64,000 bases of DNA from Spiroplasma endosymbiont of 'Nebria riversi' (lineage in GTDB: Bacteria; Bacillota_I; Bacilli_A; Mycoplasmatales; Nriv7). The notes beneath the pieces are model-generated. The model was not told the DNA's origin. It saw only the letters and a list, made by a program, of their open reading frames with translations, and ran no database searches. The number at the start of each line of letters is the position of its first letter. Position 1 is the stretch's first letter. Both the position numbers and the translations under genes were made by a program. The stretch covers positions 744,001-808,000 of the forward strand of contig NZ_CP065193.1 of assembly GCF_018831625.1 (NCBI RefSeq), written 5' to 3'. Shown here one piece after another: positions 15,710 through 48,772 of this stretch.

Positions 15710-16351
15710 ATTAGGATTAATTTTTCTTAGTAATGTTTCCGTTTCCAAAAGTTGACCTAATGTTGTTATATTTGCACTTTTATAATTCTTAACAAATTGT
15801 TTTCGTGCCAAAAATCCCAAATGATTAAGCATAGTTTCTTTAGTTGGTTTTTTAGTATAGTCAAATCAATTTTTATATTTGTCAAGAATAATTTTTTTAT
15901 TATGAACCTGCGAAATAATCTGCTCTAAATTATTAGCCGTTGTTATCCCTAAGTGACTAATAATTTTATTTTCTTTCGCTAGATTAAAAAATTTTGTTGT
16001 TTTATAAGCTCTTGATATCTTACTAATTTCACCAATAGCTGGCGTTAAATTAAGTAAATTGCTTATTGTATTACTTTGTTCTTTATAAATATCATATACT
16101 TGATTAATTGTAAAATCAGTTACAACACGCACACTTGAAGCAATTAATTGGGATGTTAAATTTGATAATCCAGCACTTAGAGAAAATTTTAGCGACAGAC
16201 CAGCAGTAAATTTTGCTAATAAAATACCAATGATTTGCACACCTACAAATTTTAATAATTCCAGTAAAAAATCATTTTCTTGTTCTTGGGGCATTTGCGT
16301 AGTTTTAATAACTCTCAACTGCAAAGCAGTTATATTAGTTCCAATGGGCAT
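15692..16351 (-). pseudogene. Tailed-phage structural-region protein, 3'-truncated by IS3
   Basis: Starts MPIGTNITALQLRVIK directly downstream of the capsid gene and reads ~214 native residues to LETETLLRKINPN before running into IS3 sequence and a TAA. A hydrophobic stretch (LLKFVGVQIIGILLAKFTAG, residues ~33-52) and later amphipathic helices are visible. I do not recognise the family. Its place after scaffold and capsid genes suggests a virion protein. Confidence 0.6.
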
Positions 16352-19040: not shown

Positions 19041-19418
19041 CTAATTTAAATCAGTTTCTTTTAGCCATTCGGGAATAATATAATTAAAATTAATATTTTT
19101 ATCAGCTTCAGATTTTTTAATATTTTCTAAAAATTTTTGTCGATTTTTAATTTTAACTTCTTCATACAAATTAATAATTTTTCGCCCCTTAATGGTTGTA
19201 ATTTTCTGTGCACCGTTGGTATCATAATTAATAACTTCATAATTATTTTCTGTAAAAATACTGATCACCATCTGATTTGCATGTTTAATTGATGGGTATA
19301 CTAGTTTGCGAGGAACTCAAGAACCACCACCACTATTGGGAATTGATAGTAAAATCGCATTTGTTGTTTCAGCAACAATATATTTTTTATTCAAAAATAA
19401 ATTTTTTAAGTTAGTCAT
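19041..19418 (-). CDS. Plectrovirus-type protein of unknown function
   Basis: 125 residues starting MTNLKNLFLNKKYIVAETTN, with AILLSIPNSGGGSWVPRKLVY and a C-terminus IPEWLKETDLN. It resembles in pattern the 109-residue protein at 48136-48465 (FLN-KKYLLKETQNAILIKAP...GIWFSKRFVY), which heads the plectrovirus block. Both are preceded by the same kind of stem-loop-rich AT region, so this is the first gene of a second, otherwise lost plectrovirus copy. RBS GGAG lies in GAGGAGTTAATAAATA upstream. No known domain recognised. Confidence 0.65.
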
Positions 19419-19882
19419 TATTTATTAACTCCTCATATCAATAATTTTTTATTTTTTGTAAAAAGATAATATACATCCTTCCTTATATGCAATTTCCTAG
19501 TTAGCTAACATAGTTAACTATCTAAATAAATCTATGTTATCTCTTTTATGTTAACTAAGTTATGTTAACTAAGTTATGTTAGCTAACTAGGTGCGAGAAA
19601 TGCTGGAAATTACCAAAAAGCATTTTTTGGCACACCTAAAAAGTGTTCTCATATTTACAACACAATTTTTAGATAGAGTTTAGTTTTTTGTTCGAACAAG
19701 TTAATAAAGTTAGTTTAATTTTATTAATTAAAATACCCACCTTCTTTAAAAAATTATTGTTAAGAGGAGTATTCTTGCTGGTCTAAAATGGTTACCTTGC
19801 ACACATAATTATAAACCAATCTCCAATATTTATACGAAGTGCATATTTTGTTTTACAAAAGAACAAAAAAGACGATATTATT
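19419..19882. promoter_or_regulatory. Plectrovirus-type intergenic stem-loop region
   Basis: No gene. CCTAGTTAGCTAACATA (19496-19512) is repeated inverted at 19575-19591, enclosing direct repeats of ATGTTAACTAAGTT. Right after it AGGTGCGAGAAATGC pairs imperfectly with GCATTTTTTGGCACACCT (to ~19642). The layout (large stem-loop, iterons, adjacent first gene) resembles a replication origin or control region of filamentous phage; that role is inferred. The rest up to 19850 shows only AT-rich sequence. Confidence 0.5.
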
Positions 19883-19892
19883 GTCTTTTTTT
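19864..19892. terminator. Hairpin at the right border of the insert
   Basis: AAAAAAGAC-GATATTATT-GTCTTTTTT, terminator-like on either strand. It overlaps the inner part of the right inverted repeat. Confidence 0.55.
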
Positions 19893-19923
19893 TATCTCAC
19901 TACATCTTTGTTATATGCCCTTT
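19883..19923 (-). repeat. Right terminal inverted repeat of the 18.9-kb insert
   Basis: Reverse complement reads AAAGGGCATATAACAAAG, then ATGTAGTGAGAT and AAAAAAAAGAC, pairing with 1065-1102. CTA follows at 19924-19926, matching CTA at 1062-1064. Confidence 0.75.
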
Positions 19924-45832: not shown

Positions 45833-46699
45833 TTACTTATTTTTCTTATTCAGATTATTTTTTAACTTAGTAAGTATCTTACTGAATTTTTCCATTTTTA
45901 AATATTCTAACGCTTCAATATCCATTACATTATCATTTCAAAATTTATGTTGATAATTATCATTCAAAGCACGATTATTTAATTCACGCAAGAATGATAA
46001 ATATTTATTATCATAAAGGTTTAAAATTGACATCGGAATTTTTAATTTAAAGAAATAAATGTCTAATTCCGGAATGCTACGATACTTGATTTTGCGACCT
46101 TTTTTATCGTTTTTAGCATTAATTAAAGTTAATCGTCATTGTTCGTATTCACTTACGGATTTAAAAGTGCCATAAATAACTTGTAAATAAGGACGAAAGA
46201 TGCTAACTGGTTTTTTTCTAATACCAACAATTATTGAATTAGCAATATCGCGAACTTTAGCTCATATATGTTCGGCTCGTTGTCCGCTTGCTAATACGAT
46301 ATGAGTAAATTGCCGTGCTGAAGCAAAATATTCTTGTAAACCTTGGGCCGCCCTATCATTTTCTTTATAGTCAGTTCCTTCTAAAAATAAGTTGGTTTCA
46401 TCTCATAACAGCAAATGCTTTTCTTCTAATATCGGATAATTATAATCTAATAAAGACATATGCCCTAATGAAAGCATTTGTTTATCCGTAATCGGAAAAG
46501 TAGAAATTGTTTTTCAACCACTTAATAAGTAAGAAGCCAAAACCATTAAAACAGTTTTTCCAGTCTCTAAGGCGCCAATTACTAAATTTAAGGGTGAATT
46601 TAATAAGAAATTAATAAAACTACGACAAGCAAAAAAATGAGAAATTTTAGTATATAAAATATACAAAGCAATTAATAAATAAATAATATCAAATAACAT
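45833..46699 (-). CDS. Zot-like assembly ATPase of plectrovirus
   Basis: 288 residues. An N-terminal hydrophobic helix (IIYLLIALYILYT) precedes Walker A GALETGKT (residues ~43-50). KHLLLWDETNLFLEG is the Walker B-like strand, and QFTHIVLASGQRAEHIWAKV resembles sensor-type segments of Zot/pI proteins. The family (zonula-occludens-toxin N-terminal domain, phage pI) drives extrusion of filamentous phage through the membrane. Several UGA Trp codons occur. A C-terminal scrap of a second copy is at 36271-36335. Open and apparently intact, although surrounding virion genes are damaged. Confidence 0.82.
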
Positions 46700-47749: not shown

Positions 47750-47944
47750 TTATTGTTTTAAACAATTATGTTCAAAAAAATCAACATAAAGTCAATTATC
47801 ACCAACTAAATCAGTTCTAACAGAATCAACTGCAAATTTAGACGCTCAAATTTTTTGTTCTAATCCGGTTTTTTTATTAATAGAATATATAAACTCTTGA
47901 CAATAATCTTTGCCAGGATCATCCACACTAACTCATATTTTCAT
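47750..47944 (-). CDS. Plectrovirus small acidic protein
   Basis: 64 residues: MKIWVSVDDPGKDYCQEFIY, KKTGLEQKIWASKFAVDSVR, NWLYVDFFEHNCLKQ. Alternating strands and aromatic residues without a membrane helix are compatible with a small ssDNA-binding (gene V-like) protein, but no signature proves it. GGAG is in the ribosome position (TTTTGGAGTTTTAGAA). Confidence 0.55.
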
Positions 47945-47971: not shown

Positions 47972-48082
47972 TTACATCAAATCAAAAAATTGCAGTAACT
48001 TAGTTAAATAACTCACTCATCCATAACTAGCAGGCGGAGCATACGCTTTCCGCACTGCTTCGCCATTATAAATATCAACCAA
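47972..48082 (-). CDS. Possible short plectrovirus ORF
   Basis: 36 codons if started at TTG 48082: LVDIYNGEAVRKAYAPPASY then WVSYLTKLLQFFDLM. The open frame reaches further upstream without an ATG. Kept because it fits the tight viral gene spacing; start very uncertain. Confidence 0.35.
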
Positions 48083-48135: not shown

Positions 48136-48465
48136 TTAATTTTTAAAATAATTAAAACTTACATCTTTTTTATCATTCTCTTTTTCGGCAATAAAAAAAT
48201 TTAACAATTCTGGCCCTATAATCAAATTAGACTCCTGCTCTTTCTTATTAACTGAAACCAACTGATACTCACCATTTCTAATTATTCCAATACAAATAGA
48301 ATTTTCATATCTTCCTTTATAAACAAATCGCTTTGAAAATCAAATACCAATAGGATTACTAAATCACGGAATTTCTGGTGCTTTAATAAGAATTGCGTTT
48401 TGTGTTTCTTTTAAAAGATATTTTTTAGTATTTAAAAAAATATTTTCAATATTTCTCACATACAT
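48136..48465 (-). CDS. Plectrovirus-type first gene, unknown function
   Basis: 109 residues: MYVRNIENIFLNTKKYLLKE, NAILIKAPEIPWFSNPIGIW, KRFVYKGRYENSICIGIIRN, ending KDVSFNYFKN. It shares spacing and motifs (FLN.KKY, NAIL, W..KR.VY) with 19041-19418. Both sit immediately downstream of a repeat-rich stem-loop region, so this may be a DNA-binding or replication-control protein; that is inference. AAGGATGG precedes the ATG. Confidence 0.6.
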
Positions 48466-48772
48466 ACCATCCTTACAAATATATTTAGTTATATTAAACT
48501 AAGTTATATTTAACTTAGTTATCTAACTAAGTTAAATATTTATTTTGTTAAACATTTATGTTTAACAAAATTTGTTAGTAAACTTCGTTTACTAATTAAC
48601 TTAGTTTATTACTATCAAGGCATAAAAAAATACAAGGCATAACTAAAAATAATAAATATTAATTTAACCTTATATTTCTTGTAATAAATAAATGAGCTCG
48701 TATTTATTTATTAATTAAAAGCAAGTTTGTAGAAACCAAAATCTTGTCATATGTATATGGTTTCCACAAATT
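48466..48772. promoter_or_regulatory. Plectrovirus-type stem-loop region
   Basis: No gene. Nested inverted repeats: AACTAAGTTATATTTAACTTAGTT near 48500-48523, TTTGTTAAAC-ATTTAT-GTTTAACAAA near 48554-48579, and TAGTAAAC-TTC-GTTTACTA near 48587-48605. Equivalent in position to the stem-loop region at 19496-19642 and likely the viral origin or main promoter region. Beyond 48610 only AT-rich sequence to the IS1595 fragment. Confidence 0.5.

What the first reader, a model, noticed from the sequence alone, without database searches (positions are those of the whole stretch)
19419..19882. Origin-like stem-loop and iteron region shared by two plectrovirus loci
CCTAGTTAGCTAACATA inverted at 80-base spacing encloses direct repeats of ATGTTAACTAAGTT, with a second hairpin next to it. 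The block at 48480-48605 has the same architecture but different bases, beside a related first gene. Conserved shape with changed sequence suggests a co-evolving initiator or repressor binding region.
Basis: partly seen in the sequence, partly recalled or inferred. Interest (0 to 1): 0.5.

Follow-up and report, generated by a model that had tools for sequence, protein, structure and literature searches.

The report
Operator array shared by different phages
A cluster of short mirror-symmetric DNA sites sits in front of one small gene in dozens of integrated phages of a Spiroplasma-like bacterium, in two phage types that otherwise share little, and it looks more like a gene-control switch than a replication origin.

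Summary
The repeats are real, but the 19 kb locus is not a plectrovirus: apart from its first gene (125 aa, homologous to SpV1 ORF4) its identifiable phage genes resemble Spiroplasma phage MaM-2019a. The 48 kb locus is an SpV1-like plectrovirus. Contrary to the finding, both blocks share an exact core, the palindrome TAACTWAGTTA, in one to several units, in the leader of the ORF4-like gene. In the own genome 56 of 61 ORF4-like genes have a site (at most 1 mismatch) within 320 bp upstream, against 4 of 71 windows inside the elements; the exact core occurs 64 times, its reversed control once. SpV1-type relatives (S. citri, S. kunkelii, S. phoeniceum) carry AACAWTGTT instead, a symmetric swap in both half-sites. 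No exact core occurs in SVTS2, SVGII3 or MaM-2019a, in which no ORF4 was found; no SVTS2-type Rep was found in the loci of the three families searched. Best reading: an operator array read by a two-fold symmetric protein controlling the ORF4 transcript and perhaps a transposase-like gene. ORF4 is the leading, unproven reader; a host factor is the main rival, because the palindrome type follows the host group better than ORF4 ancestry. Origin function is not supported. Nothing was tested experimentally.

The parts
19041..19418 (-). ORF4-like gene of family A, 125 aa (P0001); the array lies in its leader
   Evidence: phrog_15243, E 1.4e-13; 28% identity to P0002; 32-34% to ORF4 of SpV1 R8A2B, C74 and SkV1
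19496..19512 (+). left arm of the 17-nt inverted repeat; the near-site TAACATAGTTA (1 mismatch) at 19506-19516 overlaps it
19575..19591 (+). right arm of the inverted repeat
   Evidence: identical in 11 of the 12 aligned family-A blocks
19548..19575 (+). two ATGTTAACTAAGTT units; the exact sites TAACTAAGTTA lie at 19552-19562 and 19566-19576
19590..19636 (.). second hairpin-capable stretch
   Evidence: no co-variation test made
19863..19892 (+). short hairpin followed by T-rich sequence near the element end (terminator-like by eye; the terminator scan reported none)
   Evidence: (I13)
19910..19920 (+). conserved element end GTTATAYRCCC; flanking sequences differ beyond it
   Evidence: 11 places genome-wide, 0 for the reversed control
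15713..16351 (-). fragment related to phage MaM-2019a protein UXX42202, taken as part of the same element (an IS3-like insertion lies between it and ORF4)
   Evidence: 42.8% identity over 215 aa, E 2e-40; for the match of this stretch to other family-A copies
48136..48465 (-). ORF4-like gene of family C (plectrovirus), 109 aa (P0002)
   Evidence: (phrog_15243, E 4.4e-6); the C74 ORF4 query did not reach family C at E 1e-3
48496..48534 (+). family-C array: exact sites 48511-48521 and 48524-48534, near-site 48496-48506
48542..48571 (.). hairpin with 14-nt arms; apparent counterpart of the family-B hairpin
   Evidence: (I8)
48575..48595 (.). hairpin with 9-nt arms and a three-base loop
48597..48607 (+). 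further near-site TAACTTAGTTT (1 mismatch) beyond the hairpins
47996..48006 (-). further exact site, about 52 bp before the next gene (47750-47944)
   Evidence: 15 of 64 exact sites of the genome fall in this downstream class, but these are near-identical family-C copies
48729..48767 (.). terminal hairpin at the family-C provirus end
45833..46699 (-). plectrovirus ORF2 homologue, showing that the 48 kb locus is a plectrovirus

Best explanation
The block is a cis-acting operator array in the leader of an ORF4-like gene. A two-fold symmetric (probably dimeric) protein reads a short palindrome, TAACTWAGTTA in this genus and AACAWTGTT (at its fullest TAACAWTGTTA) in the S. citri/phoeniceum/kunkelii group, at one to several sites, most often 13-16 bp apart in this genus. 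Its binding controls expression of ORF4 and what follows it and, in family B, perhaps a transposase-like UPF0236 gene that often lies 6.5-11.3 kb downstream and mostly has one near-site about 39 bp before its start. The likeliest reader is ORF4 itself (autoregulation, and so control of copy number or superinfection). Shown: the palindromes, their number, spacing and position, their concentration in ORF4 leaders, the two exclusive palindrome types, and the presence of array plus ORF4 in two different phage types. Inferred: that a protein binds, that it is ORF4, and that binding represses.
For: 56 of 61 ORF4-like genes of the own genome have a site with at most 1 mismatch within 320 bp upstream, against 4 of 71 windows inside one element of each family. 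64 exact places genome-wide against 1 for the reversed pattern: 36 upstream of ORF4, 15 just downstream of it, 13 elsewhere. For one representative leader of each of families A, B and C, 0 of 300 shuffles reached the observed number of near-sites. Class counts are exclusive: families A/B/C 134 AACTWAGTT-type sites and 0 AACAWTGTT; S. phoeniceum P40, PmM2021 and the three SpV1 references 86 AACAWTGTT and 0 of the other (distinct sequences). Whole genomes agree. In R8A2B, C74 and SkV1 all 3, 2 and 3 AACAWTGTT sites lie in the stretch before ORF6/ORF4 and none elsewhere. SVTS2 and SVGII3 (Rep) and MaM-2019a (IS30-like transposase) showed no ORF4 (E up to 1) and have no exact site of the TAACTWAGTTA type. 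Family B has ORF4 and the array, with no C74-ORF3-like transposase found in the two B loci searched. Near-sites in front of the UPF0236 gene in 19 of 27 copies examined; 13 of 29 B copies have that gene downstream on the same strand, random placement averaging 2.8, at most 8.
Against: No binding data. The ORF4 model is beta-rich with one long helix and no obvious helix-turn-helix, and no solved structure matched convincingly. In the ORF4 tree family A groups with the SpV1-type proteins rather than with B/C (support 86/84, long-branch warning), so the palindrome type follows the host group better than ORF4 ancestry; that favours a host-encoded reader. Three ORF4-like hits, two on contig C2 and one in G040 (L116), have no array in front; of four distant ORF4 leaders counted, palindromes of the general form were few and of other types. 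Absence elsewhere is not total: SVTS2 has two single-mismatch sites 93 bp apart at the start of a coding sequence (4666 and 4759), and MaM-2019a three scattered ones and one AACAATGTT. In G001, of five family-A copies fetched, one shows no array in the stretch held and two have it about 1.2 kb away, beyond an insertion. No promoter stood out above shuffles in the three leaders scanned. Most UPF0236 near-sites read TAACTTTGTTA, not the exact core, and these copies are alike, so they count as about one event.
Confidence: 0.5

Rival explanations
1. The same operator array is read by a host-encoded regulator (or silencer of mobile DNA), not by ORF4; phages of one host group share the site because they live with the same reader.
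For: Palindrome type follows the host group: all three phage families of this genus have the AACTWAGTT type although A's ORF4 groups with SpV1-type ORF4s. Each genome has mainly one type: TAACTWAGTTA against TAACAWTGTTA 64:2, 63:4, 44:10, 16:4 and 64:5 in the genus, 6:42 and 1:21 in the two S. phoeniceum genomes.
Against: Of the 13 exact sites outside the ORF4 neighbourhood, 8 were fetched and none marks a clear host-gene operator: three UPF0236 leaders, one family-B leader, one terminator-like hairpin, two inside long reading frames, one uncertain (L184). The grouping of family-A ORF4 is weakly supported.
Confidence: 0.22
2. Replication origin: iterons plus hairpin bound by a Rep protein.
For: Iteron-like repeats next to hairpins in an intergenic region of phages; strong single-strand folding.
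Against: No SVTS2-type Rep homologue in the A, B and C loci searched; other Rep types were not tried. Rep-encoding SVTS2 and SVGII3 have no exact site. The ICTV profile (PMC8295915, read whole) says Vespertiliovirus phages possess a transposase gene and use a transposition mechanism. Sites also occur ahead of other genes.
Confidence: 0.1
3. The hairpins, not the palindromes, are the functional part: a complementary-strand start, packaging signal or RNA regulatory element on the single-stranded or transcribed form, with the palindromes secondary.
For: In 22 family-B leaders the hairpin pairs in 98.0% of cells, with 5 cells changed on both sides, against at most 53.5% paired and 0 such cells when slid. 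The family-C region folds at z = -8.9.
Against: 4 of the 5 double changes are at one pair in related copies, and two of the five measures were reached by many shuffles (78 and 353 of 500). Family A, which resembles MaM-2019a and is presumably double-stranded, keeps the array. No Rfam family reached its gathering score in either region.
Confidence: 0.13
4. No present function: relics that are alike only because the proviruses are recent copies.
For: Copies within a family are alike, and some are truncated or interrupted by insertion elements.
Against: The core is shared by three families whose surrounding leader sequence differs, and SpV1-type relatives have a symmetric variant in the same position.
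Confidence: 0.05

Closest known systems
Spiroplasma plectroviruses SpV1 R8A2B, C74 and SkV1 (Vespertiliovirus), intergenic region before ORF6/ORF4
   Same: Same position before ORF4; repeated palindromes confined to that region: 3, 2 and 3 AACAWTGTT sites there and 0 in the rest of each genome
   Different: The palindrome is AACAWTGTT (the full TAACAWTGTTA once each in R8A2B and SkV1, not in C74), not TAACTWAGTTA; neighbouring sites are tens of bases apart, not about 14
Spiroplasma phage MaM-2019a (OL689230), annotated with portal, terminase, capsid and RecT
   Same: Homologues of two of its proteins in family A at 35-43% identity
   Different: No ORF4 homologue and no exact TAACTWAGTTA found in it; its portal, terminase and RecT queries did not hit the family-A loci
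Phage immunity regions with repressor operators (for example lambdoid phages or PY54; recalled, PY54 seen only as a title in the listing)
   Same: Repeated palindromic sites beside an early-placed gene; modules exchanged between phages
   Different: The ORF4 model shows no obvious helix-turn-helix; binding not shown
Rolling-circle double-strand origins with iterons (recalled)
   Same: Direct repeats next to hairpins
   Different: No SVTS2-type Rep homologue found; no nick site tested

Membership tests
Plectroviridae, locus at 19 kb (family A) | plectrovirus ORF1, ORF2, ORF5 and ORF9 homologues | tested here: not met
   none of these queries (C74 and family C) hits the four A sequences searched at E 1e-3, while ORF4 does. 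C74 ORF3 hits L145, and weakly (27.6%, E 2.5e-4) the window copy, inside its IS3-like insertion
Plectroviridae, locus at 48 kb (family C) | ORF2 and SpV1 ORF3-type transposase | tested here: met
   C74 ORF2 29.7% over 256 aa, C74 ORF3 54.7% over 360 aa in the window copy. C74 ORF1, ORF5, ORF9 and ORF4 queries did not reach it at E 1e-3 in that call
MaM-2019a-like phage (family A) | homologues of its proteins in the expected order | tested here: inconclusive
   UXX42202 and UXX42201 found side by side; portal only as a weak Pfam match; terminase and RecT queries gave no hit
Rolling-circle replication origin | a Rep initiator in the same element | tested here: inconclusive
   SVTS2 Rep gave no hit at E 1e-3 in the A, B and C loci searched; other Rep types were not tried
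Rolling-circle replication origin | a nick site cut by Rep | not testable with these tools
   needs an experiment
Repressor-operator array | repeated palindromic sites in the leader of the controlled gene | tested here: met
Repressor-operator array | a promoter overlapping or next to the sites | tested here: inconclusive
   no promoter-like site above shuffles
Repressor-operator array | sequence-specific binding by the encoded protein | not testable with these tools
   no binding assay
Repressor-operator array | DNA-binding fold of ORF4 | tested here: inconclusive
   pLDDT 83.4 for the best of five models, the others 54-68; no convincing match among solved structures

The most novel reading that the evidence does not exclude
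ORF4 plus its palindrome array is a portable immunity or copy-control module traded between filamentous single-stranded-DNA phages and a MaM-2019a-like phage of the same host, able to let integrated copies of one type restrain the other; its specificity was switched by a symmetric change in both half-sites between two Spiroplasma host groups. ORF4 would be a sequence-specific DNA-binding protein without a helix-turn-helix.
Probability: 0.22. Interest if true: 0.65.

Novelty: new variant of a known kind. Interest (0 to 1): 0.45.

Why it matters
This genome carries dozens of integrated phages. A site shared by different phage types would help explain how so many copies coexist and would give a simple test of cross-immunity. 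It would also put a testable function on ORF4, a gene of SpV1-type plectroviruses that is recorded only as unknown or hypothetical in the phage records hit; the ICTV profile says that most predicted plectrovirus proteins have unknown functions (PMC8295915).

Tried and rejected
Origin reading: no SVTS2 Rep homologue in the loci searched; kept only as a rival. Transposase-binding site: MaM-2019a has a transposase but no exact site, while the two B loci searched have the array without an ORF3-like transposase; set aside, not excluded, since L145 of family A carries one. Promoters: the scans found none above shuffles, and a home-made scan was inconclusive. Known RNA families: none at gathering scores. 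Solved structures for ORF4: nothing convincing by sequence or fold; PurA- and SSB-like rows appear only at Foldseek E above 1 and were not used. In the viral library the best match is SkV1's own ORF4; five further matches at E 1.7e-5 to 2.8e-4, to unnamed or uncharacterised proteins, were not followed up.

Literature: seven searches; no title or abstract start in their listings describes the array. The listings show only the best 15, 10, 10 and 8 of many hundreds of papers, so this is no proof of absence. Read: PMC8295915 whole; passages of PMC12453411 and PMC3563533; others only as listings. The phage paper of Ramirez et al. was seen only as cited.

Rows dropped or mis-sorted: one B copy (L082) was counted with C, and one duplicate A and one duplicate PmM2021 sequence were removed; only 27 of 57 UPF0236 matches were examined; only 49 of 57 were used; of the 13 exact sites away from ORF4, 5 were not fetched. 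L116, L118 and L119 were looked at by eye only.

Full report
What is there. The repeats at 19.42-19.88 kb are real and beyond chance: a perfect 17-nt inverted repeat with 62 nt between the arms, two ATGTTAACTAAGTT units, and strong single-strand folding. In 330 nt before the gene the longest perfect inverted repeat is 17 nt against at most 12 in 100 shuffles; palindromes of any sequence, however, are not in excess. The region round the 48.48-48.61 kb block folds more strongly still.

The two loci are different phages. The 125-aa gene beside the first block and the 109-aa gene beside the second are homologous (28% identity), both match phrog_15243, and the first matches ORF4 of SpV1 R8A2B, C74 and SkV1. 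But family A, to which the first locus belongs, otherwise resembles Spiroplasma phage MaM-2019a: two proteins of copy L068 hit that phage and no other phage record, and the window fragment 15713-16351 matches UXX42202 at 42.8%. Plectrovirus ORF1, ORF2, ORF5 and ORF9 queries do not hit the four A sequences searched. MaM-2019a is annotated with portal, terminase, capsid and RecT; in family A I saw only a weak portal match, and the terminase and RecT queries gave no hit, so that A makes a phage head is an inference. Families B and C are plectroviruses (the transposase of one C copy is 57% identical to that of C74). The two phage types are not wholly apart: the MaM-2019a transposase is 46% identical to R8A2B ORF3, and one A copy in G002 has an ORF3-like transposase about 14 kb from ORF4.

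The shared site. All three families carry the exact 11-bp palindrome TAACTWAGTTA before ORF4. Of 61 ORF4-like genes in the own genome (12 in A, 29 in B, 18 in C, 2 on contig C2), 56 have a site with at most one mismatch within 320 bp; the five without are two rearranged A copies, one shortened C leader and the two on C2. Control windows inside one element of each family: 4 of 71. Of 109 spacings between successive sites, 59 are 13-16 bp; 23 more, of 4 or 9 bp, come from overlapping near-sites. The exact pattern occurs 64 times in the genome against 1 for the reversed pattern: 36 upstream of ORF4, 15 shortly downstream, 13 elsewhere. Eight of the 13 were fetched: three UPF0236 leaders, one family-B leader, one terminator-like hairpin, two inside long reading frames and one uncertain.

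Two palindrome types. In S. phoeniceum P40, isolate PmM2021 and the SpV1 references the sites read AACAWTGTT: 86 of that class and none of the AACTWAGTT class, while families A, B and C have 134 AACTWAGTT and none of the other; 8 hybrid AACAWAGTT-type sites occur in A and 16 of a third class in B and C (distinct sequences only). Whole genomes agree: TAACTWAGTTA 64, 63, 44, 16 and 64 in the five genomes of the genus against TAACAWTGTTA 2, 4, 10, 4 and 5; S. phoeniceum P40 6 against 42, PmM2021 1 against 21, where the reversed controls of the second pattern are 12 and 6. The reversed control of the first pattern is itself frequent in G003 and G008 (154 and 191), so it is not neutral everywhere. 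Among four distant ORF4 leaders counted, two have hybrid sites and the others differ.

What it follows. Of six named phages, the three with ORF4 have AACAWTGTT sites only before ORF6/ORF4; the three in which no ORF4 was found have no exact TAACTWAGTTA. The absence is not total: SVTS2 has two single-mismatch sites at the start of a coding sequence, and MaM-2019a three scattered ones and one AACAATGTT. No homologue of the SVTS2 Rep was found in the A, B and C loci searched, and the ICTV profile assigns transposition to the SpV1 genus (PMC8295915). A Rep-driven origin is therefore unlikely, though other Rep types were not tried. Near-sites also precede the UPF0236 gene in 19 of 27 copies examined, 3 of them exact; that gene lies 6.5-11.3 kb downstream of 13 of 29 B ORF4 copies, against 2.8 (at most 8) for random placement, 1 of 18 C and 0 of 12 A (49 of 57 matches used). 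In family C a second exact site lies about 52 bp before the next gene.

Who reads it. ORF4 is the natural candidate, but its predicted structure is a beta-rich domain with one long helix (best model pLDDT 83.4, the others 54-68) without a convincing solved relative. In the ORF4 tree family A joins the SpV1 type rather than B/C (86/84, long-branch warning), so the palindrome type follows the host group better than ORF4 ancestry. A host-encoded reader is therefore a serious rival. Each genome examined has mainly one type, so these data cannot separate the two.

Hairpins. In 22 family-B leaders the hairpin AAACACTTA/TAAGTGTTT pairs in 98.0% of cells, with 5 cells changed on both sides and none when slid; the evidence is thin, because 4 of the 5 are at one pair in related copies. 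In L087 the hairpin is reverse-complemented, and in L103 the family-C three-base loop is too.

Verdict. Most likely an operator array for the ORF4 leader (0.5), with a host-factor reading next (0.22). The origin reading is not supported. I saw no binding experiment in the passages I read.

Noticed in passing
L087 (family B) and L103 (family C), leader hairpins: Hairpin loops are reverse-complemented relative to sister copies, suggesting inversion between the hairpin arms.
   Followed up: partly
L171-L177, S. phoeniceum P40 ORF4 copies: Seven ORF4 reading frames, counted from the matched residue, end at nearly the same place, 61-66 residues on; perhaps an integration or deletion point.
   Followed up: no
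L025 (family A): The segment between the two inverted-repeat arms is missing and the arms are fused.
   Followed up: no
L183, L186, L188; 57 matches genome-wide: A UPF0236 (PF06782) gene family, often downstream of family B, whose leader resembles that of family-B ORF4.
   Followed up: partly
window 48729-48767; family-C ends in L138 and L139: Family-C proviruses end at a hairpin GTAGAAACC...GGTTTCTAC, with differing sequence outside.
   Followed up: partly
L145 2835-3920 (G002): An ORF3-like transposase (49% to C74 ORF3) about 14 kb from ORF4 of a family-A copy; whether it belongs to the same element is open.
   Followed up: no
L116 (G040) and contig C2 of the own genome: ORF4-like hits without an array in front, following directly on another reading frame.
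   Followed up: no
G003 and G008: The reversed control ATTGAWTCAAT is itself strikingly frequent (154 and 191 places); unexplained.
   Followed up: no
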